Positions 4,803 to 51,885 of a stretch of DNA of 64,000 bases are shown piece by piece. The stretch's first letter is position 1. Each line of letters begins with the position of its first letter. Both the position numbers and the translations under genes were made by a program. Below the pieces are notes generated by a model. The model worked only from the letters and a program-made list of their open reading frames with translations, was not told the DNA's origin and made no database searches. The stretch covers positions 52,440-116,439 of the IMG/VR virus record IMGVR_UViG_3300008267_000054. One strand, given 5' to 3'. The stretch is from a virus.

Positions 4803-5066
4803 ATGAATAAAAATCCCAAACTATATAATGCAGTGATGAAAAAGGACTTGCAGCTAAGTCCAGAATTACTTAATCTCATTGACGATCAAACACAAGACAT
4901 GGATCTACAAGTAATCTCTAAAGGATGGGTTGCAGATACAATTGAGATGTTAAAAGATACAGAATTAATACGCACCGATGACGAGTATGATGAAAACCTT
5001 GTTACTGAGTTGGCTGAATTAGCGAGACTAATGATTGAAAAAAGAATTCAAGTAATCGTATTATGA
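4803..5066 (+). CDS. Hypothetical acidic helical protein
   Basis: Unrecognised 87-residue acidic protein, largely helical by composition ('ELLNLIDDQTQDMDL', 'LVTELAELARLMIEKRI'). It has no leader motif and no cysteines. An exact TATTTATA lies at 4782-4789, 13 nt before the ATG and overlapping the previous stop codon, so it may begin a new transcript. Its TGA stop overlaps the ATG of the next small gene (ATGA at 5063). Confidence 0.6.
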   Translation: MNKNPKLYNAVMKKDLQLSPELLNLIDDQTQDMDLQVISKGWVADTIEMLKDTELIRTDDEYDENLVTELAELARLMIEKRIQVIVL

Positions 5067-35402: not shown

Positions 35403-37790
35403 ATGGCCGAAAAAATTGTCAGTCCTGGCGTCTTTACAAACGAGAAAGATCTCTCGTTTTTACCGTCAGGGGTTGCTCAAATAGGAGCAGCAATCGTGGG
35501 TCCAACTCCAAAAGGACCTGCCTTTGTACCAACTATCATCAGAAACTTTGAAGAATTCAAAGCGTATTTTGGAGACATTAATGAAAACTACTATGTACCA
35601 TATGCAGTTAGAACTTACTTAAAAAGTGCTGCATCTGTTACTATTGTACGTGTTGTATCAGAGGGTGGATATACTACTTCCGGTATTACCTTGTTTTCTG
35701 CATCAGTTGTTTATGGTTTGTTATTACCAACTATTCAAGTTGGAGCAAGCACAGGCAGTGATTTCAGCAAAACAACTTTAGGTACTGGTACTGGTGTAAT
35801 ATCAGCATCTTTTACAATCTCAGGTAGTAATGTAACTGCCGAAGCTAATGAAGTAGCTTGGGCTAAAACATCATCAAACACTGTTGAAAAGGTATTTGGA
35901 TTATCACCATCTGGTCCTAAGAAAGCTTACGCTTACTTGTGGTTCCAGAATGCTGCATCAGCATCTAACCTTATAACAATGTCATTTGCATCAGGTGCAT
36001 ATGCTGTAGGTGGTGGATCTACTATTGACTTATCAGGAGACACATTTGGCGCTTACAGTCCAGCATCAACTCCATGGGTAACATCACAGAGAATTGGTGC
36101 ATCAGGAGCAACTACAAGATTGTTCAAAGTTTACACTTTGGGTGATGGTATTGCAATGAACACCTCAGTTAAAGTATCGCTTGTTAACAACTCACTTGCT
36201 GGTACATTACCTGGTACAGATTATGGTACTTTCACTATGCTTGTTCGTGACTACACTGATACTGATCAACGTCCGATTGTATTGGAAACTTATTCTAATT
36301 TGAATTTAGATCCAGATTCTCCAAACTATATAGCAAGAAGAATTGGTGACAGATCTTATACTGTAGCCGCAAGTGGTGAAGTAACAGCTACTGGAGATTA
36401 TGCTAACGTAAGTAAGTACATCCGTGTATCTGTAACAGATGCAGTTAGAACAAAAGCACTTAGCCCATCATTGAATCCATTTGGTCACGAAGCTTATCTT
36501 GAACCATGGAGCACAGGAAGTAAGTTTCTACCAGCTGCTGTATTAACTACAAGCAATCCAACTATTAACGGTGTATACAATGCAAAAGCATACTACGCTG
36601 TTAGCTATGTTGAAACGGATAACACAAACTACTGGAAGCCATTAGCTTCAGGTTCAGTATCAGGTGCCAACGCTGCATTCAACTTAGATGCTTGCTTAAT
36701 TTCTACTGACTACGGTACACCGCTTGATGGTAATAGTTCAACTACATTAGCTGGTATTGCAGTATCTGCAAGTACACTAAGAGGTCAAGATGTTCCAAAC
36801 ATTGCTAAGTTTACCATGGGTCTACAAGGTGGATTTGATGGAATGGATCCAGCAGTACCACTTAACATTGGAGCAAACATTACCGGCACTAACACTGTAG
36901 GTTTGAATTGTAACGGTGCAACAACTGGCGGTACAAATGGCTACAAGAAAGCTCTAAATGTATTGTCAAATGCTGAAACGTACGACATCAACATGATTGC
37001 AATCCCAGGTGTTACTGTGTTTGATCACACTTTCGTAACAACTAAAGCAATTGAAGTTGCTGAAGATAGAGGTGACTGCTTCGTACTACTTGATCCAGTT
37101 AAGCAAGGTGAAACTGTAGCTGATGCAGTATCTGCAATCGCAAACAGTGGAATCAACACTAGCTACGCAGCTACTTACTGGCCTTGGGTTAAGATTGTAG
37201 ATGCTAATCGTTTGAAGCCAATTTGGGTACCACCTTCTGTAGTACTTCCTCGTGTAATTGCTCAGTCTGACACAGCAGCATTCGAATGGTTTGCTCCTGC
37301 AGGTCTGAACCGTGGTGGTATACAAGATGCAGTTGATGTTGAAGCTAAACTTAGCTTTGCACAACGCGATACCTTATATGAAGCTCGCATCAACCCACTT
37401 GCAACATTCCCAGCTCAGGGAGTATGTGTATGGGGTCAGAAAACTCTACAAACAAAAGCTTCTGCACTTGATCGTATCAACGTTCGTCGTCTGATGATTA
37501 CTCTGAAGAAGTTTATCGCAAGCTCAAGCCGCTACTTAGTATTCGAGAACAATACAAACGAAACTCGTCAGAGATTCATTAACATTGTTACTCCTTACCT
37601 AGAGAACGTAAAAGCTCGTCAGGGTCTGTATGCCTTCCGTGTAGTAATGGATGAAACTAACAACACTCCAGATGTAATTGATCGTAACGAACTTTATGGT
37701 CAGATCTTCTTACAACCTGCGAAGACAGCTGAATTCATTATCTTGGACTTCAATATTCTGCCAACTGGTGCAACTTTTGATAACGCTTAA
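35403..37790 (+). CDS. gp18: Tail sheath protein (gp18-like)
   Basis: The contractile sheath subunit, 795 residues (T4 gp18 is 659; the excess lies in Ser/Thr/Gly-rich surface domains). The N-terminus 'VSPGVFTNEKDLSFLPSG' and 'GAAIVGPTPKGPAFVPTIIR' is diagnostic. The C-terminal core 'RINVRRLMITLKKFIASSSR' and 'YAFRVVMDETNNTPDVIDRN' with 'GQIFLQPAKTAEFIILDFNI' is the inner sheath domain that contacts the tube. Codon use shifts toward C-ending codons as in gp23, consistent with high expression. The tube gene follows. Confidence 0.96.
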   Translation: MAEKIVSPGVFTNEKDLSFLPSGVAQIGAAIVGPTPKGPAFVPTIIRNFEEFKAYFGDINENYYVPYAVRTYLKSAASVTIVRVVSEGGYTTSGITLFSASVVYGLLLPTIQVGASTGSDFSKTTLGTGTGVISASFTISGSNVTAEANEVAWAKTSSNTVEKVFGLSPSGPKKAYAYLWFQNAASASNLITMSFASGAYAVGGGSTIDLSGDTFGAYSPASTPWVTSQRIGASGATTRLFKVYTLGDGIAMNTSVKVSLVNNSLAGTLPGTDYGTFTMLVRDYTDTDQRPIVLETYSNLNLDPDSPNYIARRIGDRSYTVAASGEVTATGDYANVSKYIRVSVTDAVRTKALSPSLNPFGHEAYLEPWSTGSKFLPAAVLTTSNPTINGVYNAKAYYAVSYVETDNTNYWKPLASGSVSGANAAFNLDACLISTDYGTPLDGNSSTTLAGIAVSASTLRGQDVPNIAKFTMGLQGGFDGMDPAVPLNIGANITGTNTVGLNCNGATTGGTNGYKKALNVLSNAETYDINMIAIPGVTVFDHTFVTTKAIEVAEDRGDCFVLLDPVKQGETVADAVSAIANSGINTSYAATYWPWVKIVDANRLKPIWVPPSVVLPRVIAQSDTAAFEWFAPAGLNRGGIQDAVDVEAKLSFAQRDTLYEARINPLATFPAQGVCVWGQKTLQTKASALDRINVRRLMITLKKFIASSSRYLVFENNTNETRQRFINIVTPYLENVKARQGLYAFRVVMDETNNTPDVIDRNELYGQIFLQPAKTAEFIILDFNILPTGATFDNA

Positions 37791-37814: not shown

Positions 37815-38312
37815 ATGGCACAATTAATTCCAGATAACGGCCCTCAAGGTATTTATTATACCAATTACGAGCCAAAAACACAGAATAGATTTATATTGTC
37901 GGTTAGTGGGATACCTTCTTTCATCATGAAGAAGGTAACCCGCCCGAATATTGACTGCGGTGAGGTTATCATTGACCACATCAACCTAGTAAGAAAACTG
38001 AAAGGTAAATGTAAATGGCAAGATATCTCCATGACCCTCTATGATCCGATTGTACCTTCTGGTGCTCAAACGGTAATGGAGTGGGTAAGAACTGCTCACG
38101 AATCAGCAACAGGACGTGATGGATATGCAGACTTCTATAAGAAGGACTTCCAAATCCAAACACTTGGTCCGGTAGGTGATATCGTTGAACAGTGGACTGT
38201 AAAAGGTGCTTACATCAAGACTGCAAACTTTGGTCAATTAGACTGGTCTACTGAGACTCAAGTTGAAATTGAACTTACAATCGGTTTAGATAACTGCTTC
38301 CTAGAGTTCTAA
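37815..38312 (+). CDS. gp19: Tail tube protein (gp19-like)
   Basis: The inner tube subunit, 165 residues, the same size as T4 gp19 (163). Characteristic are the N-terminal 'RFILSVSGIPSFIMKKVTRP', the 'KGKCKWQDISMTLYDPIVPS' stretch, 'GPVGDIVEQWTVKGAYIKTA' and the final 'TEVQ/EIELTIGLDNCFLEF'-type strand. A variant TACTTATA (37791-37798) precedes the ATG by 16 nt, and a strong terminator follows. Confidence 0.95.
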   Translation: MAQLIPDNGPQGIYYTNYEPKTQNRFILSVSGIPSFIMKKVTRPNIDCGEVIIDHINLVRKLKGKCKWQDISMTLYDPIVPSGAQTVMEWVRTAHESATGRDGYADFYKKDFQIQTLGPVGDIVEQWTVKGAYIKTANFGQLDWSTETQVEIELTIGLDNCFLEF

Positions 38313-38410: not shown

Positions 38411-39280
38411 ATGGCTAACGTAGTTGACGAGAATTACCCTAAGAAGGGTCCGATTTCAAACGAGGAAATCAAACAAATGTTTGCAGCAGAAGCAGCTGCC
38501 GTTGCTGGACAAGCAACACCAATCAAACACGACTTTGCAACAGAGATGATCGACTTACCATCTCAAGGTTATTTCTACCCAGAAGGACATCCACTACAAA
38601 GTGGCAAACTGGAGATGAAGTATATGACTGCAAAGGAAGAAGATATCTTATCATCAGCAACACTTATTAAACAAGGTGTTGTTATTGATAGATTGATTCA
38701 AGCATTGATTGTAGACAAGATTAATTATAATGATCTACTTGTAGCAGATAAGAACGGACTACTCATTGCAGCAAGAATTTTGGCATACGGTCCACAGTAC
38801 GATGTAGAAGTTACTTGTCCTAATTGTGGAGCTAAGAACAATCTCAACATTGATCTATATCAATTTGAGTCTAAGGATTTAGACTTCAGTAAGTTCCAAA
38901 AAGGTCAAACTGAGTTTGAATACAAGTTTCCAAATGGTAAAACTATTACCTACAAATTCTTAACTCACGGTGACGAAAAGAATATTGAAGCAGAGCTTAA
39001 AGGATACAACAAACTTCGCAGCATTAGTGGAGTAGATACTCAGCTGTCTACAAGATTAAAGCACATTATTGCTTCAGTTGAAGGAGATAATACACAAGCT
39101 ACTATTAATAAGTTTGTTGATAACATGCTATCAAGAGATTCCTTACAGTTTAGAAAACACTTAAAAGAAGTGACACCTGACATCGATTTAACATTCCAGT
39201 TTGCTTGCAACAGCTGTGATCATGTTGATGACAAGATGCAGTTGCCACTTGGGGTATCCTTTTTTTGGCCTGGGGCCTAG
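38411..39280 (+). CDS. Baseplate hub / tail-assembly protein (gp26-like), zero-frame product
   Basis: A 289-residue protein between tube and tape measure. It has a 'MKYMTAKEEDILSSATLIKQ' and 'GVVIDRLIQALIVDKI' segment typical of the T4 gp26-type baseplate family. Two CxxC pairs ('CPNCGAKNN' and 'CNSCDHV') should bind one zinc. The frame ends 'GVSFFWPGA' then TAG at 39278, immediately after T7 and GGGG runs; the conserved-looking continuation is in the +1 frame (next entry). Gene position and probable frameshift match phage tail-assembly chaperones that build the tail around the tape measure. Confidence 0.72.
   Translation: MANVVDENYPKKGPISNEEIKQMFAAEAAAVAGQATPIKHDFATEMIDLPSQGYFYPEGHPLQSGKLEMKYMTAKEEDILSSATLIKQGVVIDRLIQALIVDKINYNDLLVADKNGLLIAARILAYGPQYDVEVTCPNCGAKNNLNIDLYQFESKDLDFSKFQKGQTEFEYKFPNGKTITYKFLTHGDEKNIEAELKGYNKLRSISGVDTQLSTRLKHIIASVEGDNTQATINKFVDNMLSRDSLQFRKHLKEVTPDIDLTFQFACNSCDHVDDKMQLPLGVSFFWPGA
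39260..39280 (+). other. Probable +1 frameshift site
   Basis: Seven T (39260-39266) and four G (39272-39275) directly precede the in-frame TAG at 39278. A +1 slip of the glycine codon GGG onto the overlapping GGG, or of TTT onto TTT, joins the 38411 frame to the open +1 frame. The T or G runs could also hide a sequencing indel, which cannot be excluded here. Confidence 0.55.
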
Positions 39281-39464
39281 TTACCGGCCCCTACTCTACG
39301 GACAACTCTTTGATCTAATGTATCATGGTAAGATGGGATTTACTCATACAGAACTCTACAATTTACCAATATATCTTCGCAATTTTTACTATAAGAAATT
39401 GGTAGAGATTCGAAAGCAGGAAAACGAAGAGCATCAGAAAGCAGCGAGTAAAAGTAAAAGATAA
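39276..39464 (+). CDS. C-terminal extension reached by +1 frameshift (gp51-like part)
   Basis: The +1 frame continues without interruption: 'SYRPLLYGQLFDLMYHGKMG', 'FTHTELYNLPIYLRNFYYKK' and a Lys/Glu tail, ending at TAA 39462-39464. The stretch before the first ATG (39318) already reads as conserved protein, so an independent start at 39318 would discard half the domain; the only earlier start is a TTG at 39201 giving an unlikely peptide. A fused product of about 350 residues is the better reading. The helix-rich domain resembles hub-assembly parts of T4-like phages. Confidence 0.6.
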   Translation, partial: PSYRPLLYGQLFDLMYHGKMGFTHTELYNLPIYLRNFYYKKLVEIRKQENEEHQKAASKSKR

Positions 39465-39521: not shown

Positions 39522-39815
39522 ATGACTAGGAAAGAACTTCAGGAAATCATTCAAGAAGAGTATGTTAATGTTAGACTCGAAGAAGGTCTACTTTCTTGGG
39601 CAAGTGGTGCAGCAGACAATCTTGTTTATGGTATCCTAAATAGAAGAGCGGATATTATGAATAGTAAGATTTTTGATGATCCAAAACTATTACAACTTGC
39701 CAAAGACCTTAAAATGAGTAAGAGTGATTTTGAAAAAAGGGTAACATCAATGTTATCAAAAGATAATAGATTTCTAAAAGCACTGGCAACAGTTAGAGCT
39801 AAGTACGTTAGATAA
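39522..39815 (+). CDS. Small protein coupled to tape measure
   Basis: A 97-residue protein whose stop shares a base with the tape measure ATG. It starts 'MTRKELQEIIQEEYVNVRLE', the second type of leader with I-Q-E and L-E-E. The rest is helical ('PKLLQLAKDLKMSKSDFEKR', 'RFLKALATVRAKYVR'). Position suggests an assembly factor for the tail or hub. Function not recognised. Confidence 0.65.
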   Translation: MTRKELQEIIQEEYVNVRLEEGLLSWASGAADNLVYGILNRRADIMNSKIFDDPKLLQLAKDLKMSKSDFEKRVTSMLSKDNRFLKALATVRAKYVR

Positions 39816-42800
39816 TGGCATTAGACGCAGAAGAGTTTGACTTTGAGGGGTTAGGTAGTAAACTAACTAACACAATACTTGGGAGCTTTAATGAAGCTCT
39901 CGGGAAAATCAAATTTTCTACGATAGGCACCAGCTTAACGGCAGCTTTCAAAGAGGTTAAAATGTCCAAAGTAATTGAAGACAGTTTAACAAAGAGTAGC
40001 GAAGTTAAAGGTGCAATGAAAGACATTCAGAAAAAATTAGAGGATGGCTTTAATAAAATAAAATTTAAGGTAGGTGATATTACGGTACCTGAGTTACCAG
40101 AGCAAGTTGTCAAAGTAACTGCAGATACGTCCGAATTCAAATTACAAGATCAAAAACCAGTAGTAGTACCAGTACAGTATAAGTACGATAAATTCGAGCA
40201 ACAGAAGTTTGATCCAATAACTGTATCTGTTAAATATGAATATCCAAAACCTGAGTTACCAAAAACAGATCTTTTACAGGTAGGTGTTGAACCTGTTTAT
40301 GAAAAACTTGTACCACCAAAAGCACAAGATCTCCCAATAACATTAGTACCAGATACAACAAAGTTAGACGCAGTAAAGCCAACGATTGATACTGGACCAT
40401 TTGAAAAAGTTGGTGATTTGGTAAGAGAGTTCGTTAACCTAACTCAAGAAGCAAATAAGAAAACTAAAGTTACCTCAGAACTCTATTCTAAAATTGTTGG
40501 TATTGCTGAAAAGCTTGTAGCAACAAAAAGAATGGAAAAAGATGCTATTGATCAGATATTAGCTTCTTACCAACAAAAAATGGACATACCACAAGCTGAA
40601 ATTATGGCTGAGGTTGTTGATGTTGATACAAGCAAAGTTGCAGAAGCATCTACCGGTCCAATTGAAGTCGAAGCAAATGTTGGTAAAGTTGGAGGTGGAG
40701 ATTTTAGTAGCATTGAAAAGGCAATGACTGTGCTTATAGGTAAATTAGGTAAGCAACTACAATCCTTATTTAAAACATTTGACAATAAGAAGCTCAATAT
40801 AGCTATACCACCAACAGATCGATTAGATGATTACAAGATAAGCTACGATACTATATCTTCTGCTGTAGATGAATTAAAAACTGAGGTTGGAGAACTATCT
40901 AATCTTGAACTATTCCTATCAGTTTATAGCAAAGATACATACGACATTGTACAAAAGAGAATAGCTGTTGAGAATTTATTAGTAGGTAAAAAAAGGGAGG
41001 AGCTTGATATTGCTGCACAAGTGATTGGCTTAACTAACACGGCATCATTATCAGAATCACAGCTAAAAGCATTAATAGAGAGTAAGCTTGTTTCACTCCA
41101 CAAAGAAGTTGAGTTGAGAGGTTTAATAGTTAACGCTACAGAATCCTATAATACAGCAATACAACAATCTGATTTAGGTAAACTAACAGCGGAGCTTTCA
41201 AGTCAATTTGGTTTGATTGAGGATGAAGTTGCAGCAAAAGCAACTGTACTAGCTTTAGAGAATGAAAGAGTGACTGGCGTTAGAGCACTAACAGCAGAAC
41301 AGATAACTTTACTACAATCGGAGGATGGTGTATTAAATAAAAAGAAAGAGATCTTAAATGCTGATCAGGCATTATTGAATCTTAATAAAACAATAGTAGA
41401 GTCAAACAAAAAGATTGATCTTACTACACAAACACAACAACTAGCAAATCAATTATCTCTGTTATCAGAAGAAGCAAAGTTAAAAGCTGAATTGTTGTTA
41501 CAACAGAAACTTGTAAATGGTGAGGTAGCTGAGCTAACAAACTCAGAAAAATTATCAGTTGTGTTTCTTGACCAACAAGTAGCATCAAGTAAAAAGTTTG
41601 CAGATGCCTTAGCAAAAGTTGGACAAGGGCAAACTGAAATAAGCAATTTGGTTGAGGATCTCGGCTATGATAAAATAGTAGCCGAACTATCAATACAAAA
41701 GAGTTTAACAGAAGCAACAGTTGTTGCACAAGCAAAGAGCCTAATAGCTGCTAAAGTTGCCGCTGGTGAAGCTGCAAAACTGACTGATGAAGAGCTTTCA
41801 CAACTACAAGCACTAAATAATCAAATTAAGAGTAATCAGGAAATACTTGGATTAAAGCAGAGAATTGTTGAGGCAACAAACTCACTATTTAAAACAATGC
41901 AAGACGCAACTGCAGAAGCACTTGCTCTTGAGGGTCCAATGTATACACAGTTAGGCCTAACTCAGGATTTAACGAGAGAAAAAGCATTAGCAATTATACT
42001 CGATGGTCAAAGACGTGGTCTAACCACTGACGAGATTAATATGCAACTTCAATTATTAAAAAATGAAGATGATATATTACAGAAGACAAGAGAGCGAGTA
42101 AATGCATCAAAAGACCTAGAAGCGGCAGCAGACGCATATGCACAAGCAGTTAGACAAGCTGATGCAGACATACAAATAAAGAGTTTAATTGTAGCACTTC
42201 ATTTAACAGAAGATGAGGTAGCACAGGAAGCTAGATTACTTGCGTTAAAGAATCAGCAGGCAGCAGCCGCCGGCAAATTAACTAAACAGGAGTTAGAGCA
42301 AATAAAAGCCAACAACGGTTTACTTAATAGTCAAGTACAGCAGTTAAAGTTAAACAATCAAACATTAAGGCACAGAAGAGAAGAGGTAGAATTAGTTGAA
42401 CACGTTGCAGAGTATCAAAGAGAGGTAAATGAGGAATTAGAAAAATACTCAATGGGTTGGAAAAAGACAAAGGCAACGATGTCAGCAATCATTAAGGATC
42501 CAGCCTTTGCAAAAGGAGTGTTTTTAGCAGGTGCAATAACAAGTGTTGAGAAATTACACCACTCTATGCACGAGTTTATGGATGTTGGGATGACTGCTGG
42601 TGAGGGTGTAGCAGCAACATTCAAAACACTCTCCGTCGAATCTGTTATGGGTTTGAGTAAGAGCAAAGACGTACTTACCAGTATGGTTCAAGAAACTGGT
42701 AATATGAATACCTTAAATAAGGACCAACTAAACTCAGTTGGTAAAATAGCTGCAAGTTATGGTCTTGCCGGTGATGAAGCTTTTGGTTTGTCAATGGCAA

Positions 42801-44653
42801 TATCAAGAATGCCAGGTGAAACAAAAGATACAGCTGCTAATTTTGATAAAACTGTAGCAAGTGTAGCAAAAATGAAAGGTGTGATGCCGTCTCAGGTAAT
42901 GAAAGAGATGGCAAAAAACACAGGCAATATGGCATTATTCAGCAAGGGTGGTGCAGAAGGTTTTGCCAAAGCCGCAGCAACAGCTAAAAAAATGGGTATT
43001 GAGGTTTCTTCAATGGCAAAAGCTGCTGAAGGATTATTGGATTTTGAAAATAGTATCAATAAGCAGATGGAGGCGTCTGTCTTACTAGGTAGAGAAATAA
43101 ATCTTGATAAAGCAAGAGAACTAGCTCTGTCAGGTGATTTGGAAGGTGCAACCCAAGAAATAGTTAGAAATGCTGGAGGTGCAGCTGCATTCGATAAAAT
43201 GAATGTACTACAAAAGAAAGCATTGGCTGAGGCAGCAGGTTTAACTGTTGAAGAACTACAAAAAGCAGCAAAAGCACAACAAGATGGTACCGCTGCAACA
43301 CAAGATCAAGCAAACTCAGCCGAAGAGGGACTTGGAAAAGTATTAAAGCTGGGTGGTGGTCTTGTAACCGGCTTTGGAGCAATTGCACCAATGCTTATGA
43401 CTATTACAAGTTTAATGAGTATAATGAACTCCGGTACTGCCTTAGGTGGTATGATTAAAGGTATGTCTAACTTTGCTGGCTCAACTTTTGAAGCAATAAA
43501 AGGTCTAACTAAAATGGTAGCCTTAAATGTTGGTAAAGCACTTGGATTTGGTGAAGGTTCAAAAGAAAAAGCTGGTGGTATACTTAGTAAGGCCTTTGGT
43601 AAGAAAACACCTGAATTACCAAAACCTGAAGCACCAGCAGCCGGAGGTGGAGCAGGTCCAGCAGACAAGGCAGATAAATTGAGTAAAATAAACGCAGGCT
43701 CATTACTAAAAGGTGCAGCAGCAATGTTAGTTGCAGCAGCAGCAATTTATGTTTTCGCAAAGGCAGTACAGGAATTAGATAAAGTAAAAGACTGGAAAAA
43801 TGTTGCGATAGGACTAGGTCTATTTGCAGCATCAATGGCAATAACAGCAGGAATATTATCACTAGCAGGACCAGGAATTGCAATAGCAAGCTTGGCATTA
43901 ATACCTTTTGGTTTAGCTTTAATGATGTTTGCTAAAGCCATCGATATAGCAGCACCAGCAATAACAATGTTGGGAGCAGCATTTGGATCCTTTGTAGAGA
44001 TTGTTAGTAAAAATATAGGTGGATTTATTGCGGTTGCTTTAGGTTTACCATTACTAGCAGCAGGTATTACAACACTAGGAATAGCATCTATATTTGCATT
44101 ACCAGCAGCAGGAGCACTTACCATACTTGGAATTGGTATAGCAGCTTTTGGTAAGTTGGCTGGAGCAGCTGCTCCAGGTATCGTTGCAGTCGCGACTTCG
44201 TTAGCAGGTATATCGAAAGTTGATCCAGTTAATTTTAAGAGTATTGGTGACGGCCTACTACATATAGCAAAGGGATTAGGAGCAATAGGATTGTCAGGCT
44301 TATTAGCATTGCCTGTACTTAGCATGCTTGGCAGTATGTCGGCATTTGGTGGAGCACCTACTACACCTACCACACCGGCAACAACTACACCAAAGGCAGA
44401 AGCAAAAGCAGTTGCACCTGCACCAACTACGCCAATAGCAGCTCCGGCAGCAGCCGCAGCAGCCCCAGCAACAACAACAGCAACACCTGCAGCTGCACCA
44501 AAAGCAGAGGCTGGTGGAGATATGAAAGCGTTGATGGGTAAAATGGATCAGCTAATAGCAGTATTGCAAGCAGGTGGAACGATACAAATGGATGGTAAGA
44601 AGGTTGCAGACATAGTACAACGTAATATACGAACAGTAAAATTCGCTGATTAA
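39815..44653 (+). CDS. Tape measure protein
   Basis: The longest protein in the window, 1612 residues; it should set tail length and later be ejected. The N-terminal about 900 residues are helical with coiled-coil-like Gln/Glu/Leu repeats (for example 'LLQQKLVNGEVAELTNSEKL'). Gly/Ala/Met-rich membrane-like segments occur near residues 900, 1182 and 1297-1470 ('AAMLVAAAAIYVFAKAVQEL', 'LGLPLLAAGITTLGIASIFA'), a hallmark of tape measures. A Pro/Ala/Thr linker (about 1512-1570) precedes the C-terminal 'QMDGKKVADIVQRN' motif. T4 uses gp29 for this role; the present protein is much longer, implying a longer tail. Confidence 0.9.
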   Translation: MALDAEEFDFEGLGSKLTNTILGSFNEALGKIKFSTIGTSLTAAFKEVKMSKVIEDSLTKSSEVKGAMKDIQKKLEDGFNKIKFKVGDITVPELPEQVVKVTADTSEFKLQDQKPVVVPVQYKYDKFEQQKFDPITVSVKYEYPKPELPKTDLLQVGVEPVYEKLVPPKAQDLPITLVPDTTKLDAVKPTIDTGPFEKVGDLVREFVNLTQEANKKTKVTSELYSKIVGIAEKLVATKRMEKDAIDQILASYQQKMDIPQAEIMAEVVDVDTSKVAEASTGPIEVEANVGKVGGGDFSSIEKAMTVLIGKLGKQLQSLFKTFDNKKLNIAIPPTDRLDDYKISYDTISSAVDELKTEVGELSNLELFLSVYSKDTYDIVQKRIAVENLLVGKKREELDIAAQVIGLTNTASLSESQLKALIESKLVSLHKEVELRGLIVNATESYNTAIQQSDLGKLTAELSSQFGLIEDEVAAKATVLALENERVTGVRALTAEQITLLQSEDGVLNKKKEILNADQALLNLNKTIVESNKKIDLTTQTQQLANQLSLLSEEAKLKAELLLQQKLVNGEVAELTNSEKLSVVFLDQQVASSKKFADALAKVGQGQTEISNLVEDLGYDKIVAELSIQKSLTEATVVAQAKSLIAAKVAAGEAAKLTDEELSQLQALNNQIKSNQEILGLKQRIVEATNSLFKTMQDATAEALALEGPMYTQLGLTQDLTREKALAIILDGQRRGLTTDEINMQLQLLKNEDDILQKTRERVNASKDLEAAADAYAQAVRQADADIQIKSLIVALHLTEDEVAQEARLLALKNQQAAAAGKLTKQELEQIKANNGLLNSQVQQLKLNNQTLRHRREEVELVEHVAEYQREVNEELEKYSMGWKKTKATMSAIIKDPAFAKGVFLAGAITSVEKLHHSMHEFMDVGMTAGEGVAATFKTLSVESVMGLSKSKDVLTSMVQETGNMNTLNKDQLNSVGKIAASYGLAGDEAFGLSMAISRMPGETKDTAANFDKTVASVAKMKGVMPSQVMKEMAKNTGNMALFSKGGAEGFAKAAATAKKMGIEVSSMAKAAEGLLDFENSINKQMEASVLLGREINLDKARELALSGDLEGATQEIVRNAGGAAAFDKMNVLQKKALAEAAGLTVEELQKAAKAQQDGTAATQDQANSAEEGLGKVLKLGGGLVTGFGAIAPMLMTITSLMSIMNSGTALGGMIKGMSNFAGSTFEAIKGLTKMVALNVGKALGFGEGSKEKAGGILSKAFGKKTPELPKPEAPAAGGGAGPADKADKLSKINAGSLLKGAAAMLVAAAAIYVFAKAVQELDKVKDWKNVAIGLGLFAASMAITAGILSLAGPGIAIASLALIPFGLALMMFAKAIDIAAPAITMLGAAFGSFVEIVSKNIGGFIAVALGLPLLAAGITTLGIASIFALPAAGALTILGIGIAAFGKLAGAAAPGIVAVATSLAGISKVDPVNFKSIGDGLLHIAKGLGAIGLSGLLALPVLSMLGSMSAFGGAPTTPTTPATTTPKAEAKAVAPAPTTPIAAPAAAAAAPATTTATPAAAPKAEAGGDMKALMGKMDQLIAVLQAGGTIQMDGKKVADIVQRNIRTVKFAD

Positions 44654-50541: not shown

Positions 50542-51885
50542 ATGTTTGTGGATACACGAGAGGATCTAATTGCGTACAAGCAGTACGTTGCTGGTAAAGT
50601 TGTGAAGGTAATACCTTTATTGGCTAGTAATAAACAACATTACAAATTTAGTGACATAATATCCTATTACGTTAGTTGTGACCAAAACGAGTATGTTTTT
50701 CCATTCAAGCATCCAGAGTCGGTTTTTAGTGAGTATACCTTAGAAGATATTCTAGATAACACAATATGTTACTTTTATGGTAGGTCCATATTGCTTTACA
50801 AAGATATTAATCTTAGTAATGTGTACGATCTTGAATTAGCACACTATCTAAATAAAATAGAGCCTATTGAGAGTAGCACTATATTGACAGAACACTTCTA
50901 TGCTAGAATGCATACTAAATATGCAAAAACAAACACACTTGTTAGCATATCAAACTTTATAGCATATGCTAGAGATGTAGTGAACAATTCAATAAACCAA
51001 GATGCTTGTGGTTTACCATTCTATACAAAAATGCAAACCATACTACATAGCATTGAAAGGAGTGGATTGAAAATTGATCAAAAACATTTTACACCAATAT
51101 ACGGCAGCTCAGGAAATACTATCGATGGTTTTGTCTACACAAAGTACAACCTATTTACGTCAACTGGACGACCAAGTAATAGGTTTGGAGGTATCAACTT
51201 TGCAGCATTAAATAAAAATGATGATACAAGAAGATGCTTTGTATCCAGGTATGATGATGGTACATTAGTGGAAATGGATTTTAAGGCTTATCATCCTCAC
51301 ATTATAGCATCATTAATAGACTATGATTTTGGTGATGAAAATGTTTATGAGCATTTAGCAAAGTATTATTTTGAAACAAATAAACCATCAAAGGATCAGG
51401 TATCAAAAGCAAAAGAATATACCTTTAACCAAGTCTATGGTGGTATCAATAAAAAGTATTTGAGTATTGAGTTTTTTGCTAAGGCACAACAATTTGCTAC
51501 AAATATGTGGACTACTTTTCAAAATCAAGGTTGGGTTGAATCCGGAGTGTCGGGTAGAAGATTTTATGCAGATTGTATGGAAGATATGACGGAGGCAAAG
51601 CTCTTTAACTACTACATACAAATGACTGAAACAGAGTTAAATAGTATTTTCTTAAAAAACCTACTCTCTAGTATAGACAGCACAAAAGCATTACCAGTAC
51701 TTTATATTTATGATGCTGTTGTTTTTGATTGTAAAAAGGAGTATGTTAATAAACTAATAGAAAAAATACTGGGTACAACAACACAAAAATACCCTATTTC
51801 GGTGAAGATTGGTGATAATTATAAGGAGATGATCGACTATAATTATGAAGCCACAACTATTATGCACATTCACGGACAACAGTAA
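50542..51885 (+). CDS. Compact family A-like DNA polymerase
   Basis: A 447-residue protein carrying polymerase palm motifs in order: 'STGRPSNRFGGINFAALNK' (like PolA TGRLSS..PNLQN), motif A 'LVEMDFKAYHPHIIA' (D246), motif B 'KAKEYTFNQVYGGI' (K291, Y299, G300) and motif C 'LYIYDAVVFDC' (D391, with HDE changed to YDA). The first about 160 residues could be a degenerate 3'-5' exonuclease domain; no clear DxE is seen. It is followed by gp32, UvsX, FEN nuclease and helicase, a replication block. T4 uses a family B enzyme, so this is a replacement or an auxiliary polymerase. Confidence 0.72.
   Translation: MFVDTREDLIAYKQYVAGKVVKVIPLLASNKQHYKFSDIISYYVSCDQNEYVFPFKHPESVFSEYTLEDILDNTICYFYGRSILLYKDINLSNVYDLELAHYLNKIEPIESSTILTEHFYARMHTKYAKTNTLVSISNFIAYARDVVNNSINQDACGLPFYTKMQTILHSIERSGLKIDQKHFTPIYGSSGNTIDGFVYTKYNLFTSTGRPSNRFGGINFAALNKNDDTRRCFVSRYDDGTLVEMDFKAYHPHIIASLIDYDFGDENVYEHLAKYYFETNKPSKDQVSKAKEYTFNQVYGGINKKYLSIEFFAKAQQFATNMWTTFQNQGWVESGVSGRRFYADCMEDMTEAKLFNYYIQMTETELNSIFLKNLLSSIDSTKALPVLYIYDAVVFDCKKEYVNKLIEKILGTTTQKYPISVKIGDNYKEMIDYNYEATTIMHIHGQQ

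What the first reader, a model, noticed from the sequence alone, without database searches (positions are those of the whole stretch)
39240..39464. Probable +1 programmed frameshift before the tape measure gene
The gp26-like frame ends GVSFFWPGA-TAG just after T7 and G4. The +1 frame is open over the junction and continues into a domain that reads as real protein (SYRPLLYGQLFDLMYHGKMG...) before any ATG. A slip of GGG to the overlapping GGG gives WPG-PSYRPLLYG. Tail-assembly chaperone genes of many long-tailed phages use frameshifts at exactly this map position (lambda G/GT, P2 E/E'), but typically -1; a +1 case in a T4-like myovirus would be notable.
Basis: partly seen in the sequence, partly recalled or inferred. 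Interest (0 to 1): 0.7.

Follow-up and report, generated by a model that had tools for sequence, protein, structure and literature searches.

The report
Forward ribosomal slip in tail-chaperone gene
In this virus of bacteria, ribosomes reading a tail-building gene appear to skip one base at a run of seven Ts, so that one gene gives a short and a long protein; relatives share the site almost letter for letter, although related phages with the same kind of gene slip backward or carry two genes instead.

Summary
The gp26-like gene (38411-39280) stops just after C-TTT-TTT-TGG-CCT; the +1 frame continues into a conserved three-helix domain (39267-39461) with no usable start. Of 80 IMG/VR relatives, 79 have a readable site, all with a +1-open homologous extension. 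In a wider set of 97 sites the presumed P-site codon is UUU_U in 93; the run is T7 in 78, never preceded by T. The extension evolves as protein (median dN/dS 0.12, 25 pairs). Two relatives that lost the slip codon gained their own ATG. Conclusion: programmed +1 frameshifting makes short and long tail assembly chaperones. T4 gp26/gp51 as chaperones, and frameshifting in T4-like phages, are already published (Vladimirov 2022, not readable here). The +1 form with this motif looks like a new variant, but I could not check that paper. There is no protein evidence here.

The parts
38411..39280 (+). TAC-N: gp26-like short tail assembly chaperone (289 aa), 0 frame, stop TAG 39278-39280
   Evidence: PF12322 T4_baseplate E 2.2e-16 over its cut-off; phrog_150 baseplate hub E 8.8e-19
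39259..39271 (+). slip site C-TTT-TTT-TGG-CCT; presumed P-site UUU 39263-39265 re-pairs one base downstream (39264-39266)
   Evidence: codons TTT, TTT and CCT are the only codon in 55/55, 52/52 and 56/56 rows that have that amino acid, of 56; UUU_U in 93 of 97 sites
39267..39464 (+). TAC-C: C-terminal domain read in the +1 frame (65 aa), stop TAA 39462-39464; fused to TAC-N it gives a protein of about 350 aa starting at 38411
   Evidence: homologous extension in relatives; dN/dS median 0.12 over 25 pairs; AlphaFold2 pLDDT 90.7, three helices; fusion read
39272..39291 (+). hairpin GGGGCC-TAGTTACC-GGCCCC with the 0-frame stop in its loop; possible stimulator, present in a subclade only
   Evidence: 20 selected sequences: 92% of cells paired, two pairs with changes on both sides; sequence read
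35403..37790 (+). tail sheath (context)
   Evidence: phrog_23 E 4.8e-78
37815..38312 (+). tail tube (context)
   Evidence: phrog_4542 E 4.9e-24
39815..44653 (+). tape-measure-like protein, 1612 aa (context)
   Evidence: BLASTP to the annotated tape measure of Flavobacterium phage immuto, E 5e-23; no PHROG or Pfam hit

Best explanation
The locus is a tail assembly chaperone gene that uses programmed +1 ribosomal frameshifting. Most ribosomes would stop at TAG 39278 and make the short chaperone (TAC-N). A fraction, with peptidyl-tRNA-Phe on the second UUU and UGG waiting in the A site, would slip one base forward, UUU to UUU within the U7 run, continue with GGC-CUG, and make the long form (TAC-NC) with a three-helix C domain. 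By analogy with lambda gpG/gpGT the short form would coat the tape measure protein and the rarer long form recruit tube subunits. Shown here: the frames, their conservation and coding selection, the conserved site, the co-loss of the site with gain of a start codon. Inferred: that slipping happens, at which tRNA and rate, and the assembly role.
For: 79 of 80 IMG/VR relatives have a readable site, all with a +1-open homologous extension (L016 seen after an upstream frame break; L068 ends before the site). P-site UUU_U in 93 of 97. Only the site's F, F and P columns are single-codon among the listed conserved columns. Base before T7: 0 T of 78; 26.5 T-ending codons expected among 56 non-redundant rows. 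-1 frame closed within 2 codons in 54 of 81. dN/dS median 0.12 over 25 pairs. No conserved start near the extension; no ATG at all in 11 of 81. L205 and L210 lost the UUU_U codon and have a separate ATG-started ORF for the domain, nested inside the +1 group.
Against: No protein or ribosome data. The direct profile match of this domain to the T4 gp51 C-terminus is weak (4.3% probability, E 0.009; 100 column shuffles reach 3.0%). No universal stimulatory structure: the hairpin is in a subclade only, folding z-scores are modest, and an SD-like element is not universal. Four of 97 sites lack UUU_U; three of these can still re-pair (CUU_U, CUU_U, CUU_C) and one (L083, CUA_U) fits poorly. Foldseek gave no hit at E 0.001 or better.
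Confidence: 0.87

Rival explanations
1. The +1 frame is reached by a -2 slip at the T run, adding one residue.
For: Both shifts reach the same frame; a -2 slip would land on UUU in 79 of 97 sites. -2 is known in phage Mu (Atkins review, passages).
Against: In 14 of 97 sites (TTC-TTT-TGG group, L195-L204 and L206-L209) the -2 landing codon is UCU, a middle-base mismatch, while +1 still lands on UUU.
Confidence: 0.07
2. RNA polymerase slips on the T7 run, so the shift is transcriptional.
For: A homopolymer of seven lies at the site in 78 of 97.
Against: 19 of 97 lack T7 but keep a +1 frame; where the run is T7 its codon phase is TTT-TTT-T and the base before it is never T.
Confidence: 0.04
3. 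The C domain is made separately by re-initiation or an internal start, without frameshifting.
For: L205 and L210 do have an ATG-started separate ORF, as does Pseudomonas phage Cygsa01 (TAATG).
Against: In the +1 set the first ATG in the extension lies at codon 8-66, at no common position, and 11 of 81 have none; in the window it lies inside helix 1. Separate starts go with loss of the slip codon.
Confidence: 0.03
4. Slip at GGG_G.
For: GGGG lies 5 bases after the T run in the window.
Against: Present in 14 of 97 sites.
Confidence: 0.02
5. Sequencing error or decayed gene.
For: Homopolymers are error-prone in general.
Against: Same frame break at the same place in 79 of 79 readable relatives, with purifying selection on the extension.
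Confidence: 0.01

Closest known systems
Lambda gpG/gpGT type tail assembly chaperone frameshift
   Same: short and long product from one locus between tube and tape measure genes; C domain in another frame without its own start
   Different: lambda and most known cases use -1 (Atkins review, passages; SPP1 17.5 a putative -1 at UUUUUUC); here +1 at UUU_UUU_U with UGG next
T4 gp26 and gp51 (PF12322), hub assembly chaperones
   Same: both are PF12322; gp51 has a C-terminal extension with the same predicted helix order (H206-221, H226-230, H234-248, against H6-20, H27-32, H35-64)
   Different: T4 encodes short and long forms by two separate genes; here one gene and a frame change. That some T4-like phages carry a short gene plus a fused long gene is published (Vladimirov et al. 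2022; seen only as a reference and as one sentence in PMC10885494)
Cyanophage gp26 plus 'gp51' (S-SSM7 and relatives)
   Same: same gene family, conserved Phe-Phe at the end of the short form, related C domain (profile probability 91%)
   Different: C domain in the -1 frame at U_UUU_UUC in 80 of 80 readable loci; 73 of 80 also have an ATG within 12 codons of the junction
prfB and Listeria PSA / SPP1 gp17.1 +1 frameshifts
   Same: forward slip by re-pairing of the P-site tRNA (UUU and CCC were the next most slippery codons in prfB tests, as told in PMC10885494)
   Different: those mostly have a stop codon in the A site (CUU_UGA, CCC_UGA, CCC_UAA; PSA cps has CCC_UCC); here a sense codon, UGG in 92 of 97
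HSTV-2 (haloarchaeal myovirus) chaperone
   Same: described as very likely +1 (Atkins review, passage)
   Different: source papers not held; sequence not compared here

Membership tests
Tail assembly chaperone pair (gpG/gpGT type) | lies between the tail tube gene and the tape measure gene | tested here: met
   sheath 35403, tube 37815, this gene 38411, tape-measure-like 39815; a 97-aa ORF lies between
Tail assembly chaperone pair (gpG/gpGT type) | C domain in an alternative frame open across the junction, without its own start | tested here: met
[quoted passage not shown]
Tail assembly chaperone pair (gpG/gpGT type) | both products made, long form in minority, needed for tail assembly | not testable with these tools
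   needs proteomics or genetics
PF12322 / T4 gp26-gp51 family | PF12322 domain over the curated cut-off | tested here: met
   60.6 bits against 24.5
PF12322 / T4 gp26-gp51 family | C domain homologous to the T4 gp51 C-terminus | tested here: inconclusive
   direct profile match 4.3%; linked through the cyanophage domain (91% and 97%); same helix order
-1 frameshift of the X_XXY_YYZ type | slippery heptamer in phase and -1 frame carrying the C domain | tested here: not met
   base before T7 never T, 0 of 78; C domain is in +1; -1 frame closed within 2 codons in 54 of 81, though it runs 17 codons in the window itself
prfB-type +1 frameshift | stop codon in the A site and a Shine-Dalgarno element 3 bases upstream of the slip codon (spacing recalled) | tested here: not met
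   A site is UGG in 92 of 97; SD-like 4-mers upstream are not universal

The most novel reading that the evidence does not exclude
V_UUU_UUU_U (V = not U) is a natural forward-slipping heptamer, the mirror of the backward X_XXY_YYZ heptamer: two Phe tRNAs can re-pair perfectly one base ahead, and excluding U just before the run removes the -1 option. In PF12322 chaperones the Phe-Phe at the domain border would serve either direction, set by the neighbouring bases: U before and C at the end gives -1 (cyanophages), non-U before and U after gives +1 (this clade), while T4 uses two genes.
Probability: 0.4. Interest if true: 0.75.

Novelty: new variant of a known kind. Interest (0 to 1): 0.56.

Why it matters
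Known natural +1 frameshift sites in bacteria and their phages are few (as far as I know), and most have a stop codon in the A site. This one has a sense codon there and is conserved at 97 phage sites (81 distinct junction sequences). It sits on the same Phe-Phe border that related phages use for -1 shifting, so direction could be tested by changing one or two bases in a reporter. It also implies that the C domain of many gp26-like genes is missed or filed as a separate hypothetical protein, as in phages immuto and Mel-JY01.

Tried and rejected
Slip at GGG_G (14 of 97). -1 frameshift in this clade. A universal downstream or upstream RNA structure: only a subclade hairpin and modest z-scores. 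A universal Shine-Dalgarno stimulator: GGGG occurs in 13 of 56 upstream stretches against 0.2 in control positions, but not in the rest. Direct homology of the C domain to the T4 gp51 end by profile: weak. Pfam on the C domain: DUF6760 (PF20546) in 23 of 56 members, best E 3.4e-5, but no match in four cultivated phage records; not pursued. PHROGs on the C domain: two of 56 members each, at E about 0.02, to 'baseplate hub assembly catalyst' and 'tail assembly chaperone'. Structure look-ups: BFVD no hit at E 0.001 or better, two 'tape measure chaperone' entries at E 3.6 and 4.1; PDB best Z 2.8, not meaningful; PDB by sequence, nothing relevant. tRNA scan of the window: none. My first idea that the link of gp26/gp51 to chaperones was new was dropped when the reference to Vladimirov et al. 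2022 appeared. Paper searches; none listed a report of +1 frameshifting in gp26-like genes (titles and abstract starts seen, and passages of the papers named in the report), but the most relevant paper is not held.

Rows left out of counts: L068 (contig ends before the site) and L213, L214 (truncated); L016 is not in the 97 because an upstream frame break upset the anchor, though it has the T7 site. L159 left out of the cyanophage count (no stop). dN/dS pairs: those with too few codons or saturated dS were skipped by the script.

Full report
WHAT IS THERE. The window is part of a 116,439-base IMG/VR virus record. The gp26-like ORF 38411-39280 (289 aa) matches PF12322 T4_baseplate (60.6 bits, cut-off 24.5) and phrog_150. 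It ends ...GTA TCC TTT TTT TGG CCT GGG GCC TAG. The +1 frame runs open across this stop to TAA 39462-39464 and encodes GLGPSYRPLLYGQLFDLMYHGKMGFTHTELYNLPIYLRNFYYKKLVEI.... Upstream lie sheath and tube; downstream a 97-aa ORF and a 1612-aa protein that aligns to the annotated tape measure of Flavobacterium phage immuto.

CONSERVATION. All 80 were examined: one contig (L068) ends before the site, and one (L016) has a frame break further upstream but shows the same T7 site. In all 79 readable loci the extension is open in +1 and recognisably homologous. Cultivated phages immuto (L081) and Mel-JY01 (L082) and an uncultured jumbo phage (L083) behave the same way. Of 20 further relatives of L083, 18 were long enough; 16 are +1 and two are split. 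In the set of 97 sites the second codon of the site and the next base are TTT_T in 93, CTT_T in 2, CTT_C in 1 and CTA_T in 1; the next codon is TGG in 92, though the 81 genes checked carry on average only 0.28 Trp upstream of the site. The 97 comprise 81 distinct junction sequences.

THE SITE IS HELD AT THE BASE LEVEL. In 56 non-redundant genes, among the listed columns where one amino acid reaches 80%, only the Phe, Phe and Pro of the site use a single codon throughout (TTT 55/55, TTT 52/52, CCT 56/56); the next best columns reach 91%. The base before T7 is C, G or A in 78 of 78, while same-gene codon usage predicts 26.5 T-ending codons in 56 (not corrected for phylogeny). A T there would make a U_UUU_UUU backward heptamer; I infer that its absence disfavours -1. 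The -1 frame is also closed within two codons in 54 of 81, although in the window itself it stays open for 17 codons.

THE EXTENSION IS PROTEIN. Pairwise dN/dS beyond the overlap has a median of 0.12 over 25 pairs, each locus used at most twice. AlphaFold2 gives three helices at mean pLDDT 90.7. The first ATG in the frame is residue 18, inside helix 1. Over 81 loci the first ATG falls anywhere from codon 8 to 66, and 11 have none.

DIRECTION AND MECHANISM. +1 and -2 reach the same frame. In 14 of 97 sites (TTC-TTT-TGG) a -2 slip would need the Phe tRNA to pair with UCU, while +1 re-pairs it on UUU; this favours +1. These sites, and five others without T7, also argue against slippage of RNA polymerase on a homopolymer. 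L205 and L210 form a natural control: their slip codons read TTC-TTG-TAT and TTC-CTT-TGG, their +1 frames close after 10-11 codons, and the C domain follows as a separate ORF with its own ATG; on the tree they nest within the +1 group as sisters of immuto. A hairpin around the stop is supported in 20 selected sequences (92% of cells paired), chosen because they show it; it is not a feature of the whole set, so it can be at most a local modulator.

WIDER FAMILY. Distant PF12322 phages also have an open alternative frame at the same border: by eye +1 in SP-15, LIS04, GXN1, RM378, BRock and LuckySocke, and -1 in PA5oct, XacN1 and, less clearly, LR756511. These rest on one or two sequences each. 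RM378, far from the window in sequence, also has C-TTTTTTT-GG. In cyanophage-type gp26, 80 of 80 readable loci end U_UUU_UUC with the C domain in -1 (81 examined, one without stop). T4 has two PF12322 genes, 26 and 51. Profiles link the cyanophage C domain to the T4 gp51 C-terminus (97.3%) and to this C domain (91.1%), while the direct link to gp51 is weak (4.3%); the predicted helix order of the gp51 end agrees (blocks of pLDDT 64-72 there). The tree separates the T4 plus cyanophage group from the +1 group with strong support, but several long branches make deep placements unsure.

WHAT IS KNOWN. The Atkins review (passages) says that phages use -1, -2 or +1 at the tail chaperone, that the frameshift is widely conserved except in T4, and that HSTV-2 is very likely +1. 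[quoted passage not shown] Vladimirov et al. 2022 identified the T4-like chaperone genes; I saw only its title in reference lists and a sentence in PMC10885494 that some T4-like phages carry a short gene plus a fused long gene. From recall, its abstract names genes 26 and 51 and says frameshifting is kept in several T4-like groups. PMC12846349 (passages) cites it for poly-T -1 signals. Hence the kind is known; what I found no report of is the +1 form with this motif.

VERDICT. A programmed +1 frameshift that makes the long tail assembly chaperone, very likely real, with the slip at UUU_U and not at GGG_G. New variant of a known kind.

Noticed in passing
L095 3660-3884 and L109-L188: Cyanophage-type gp26 genes end in U_UUU_UUC in 80 of 80 readable loci with the 'gp51' domain in the -1 frame; the S-SSM7 record lists it as a separate 63-aa gene. 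Possibly covered by Vladimirov 2022, not readable here.
   Followed up: yes
L205 2150-2540; L210 2150-2540: Two relatives lost the slip codon and encode the C domain as a separate ATG-started ORF with a new N-terminal stretch.
   Followed up: partly
L081 4713-4955; L082 4746-4982: In immuto only the end of the C domain is annotated, as a 36-aa hypothetical gene (4845-4955); in Mel-JY01 the domain is a separate hypothetical protein.
   Followed up: yes
A2 (C domain alignment): 23 of 56 C domains match Pfam DUF6760 (PF20546), best E 3.4e-5; this family of unknown function may be a relative of the chaperone C domain.
   Followed up: partly
window 39522-39815: A 97-aa ORF of unknown function lies between the chaperone and the tape-measure-like gene; no PHROG or Pfam hit.
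   Followed up: no
window 50542-51885: A 447-aa protein matches only part of a DNA polymerase profile (phrog_17, positions 954-1242 of 1445), perhaps a split or partial polymerase.
   Followed up: no
window 39240-39262 and relatives: GGGG is over-represented just upstream of the slip site (13 of 56 against 0.2 in control positions); possible SD-like helper in part of the clade.
   Followed up: partly
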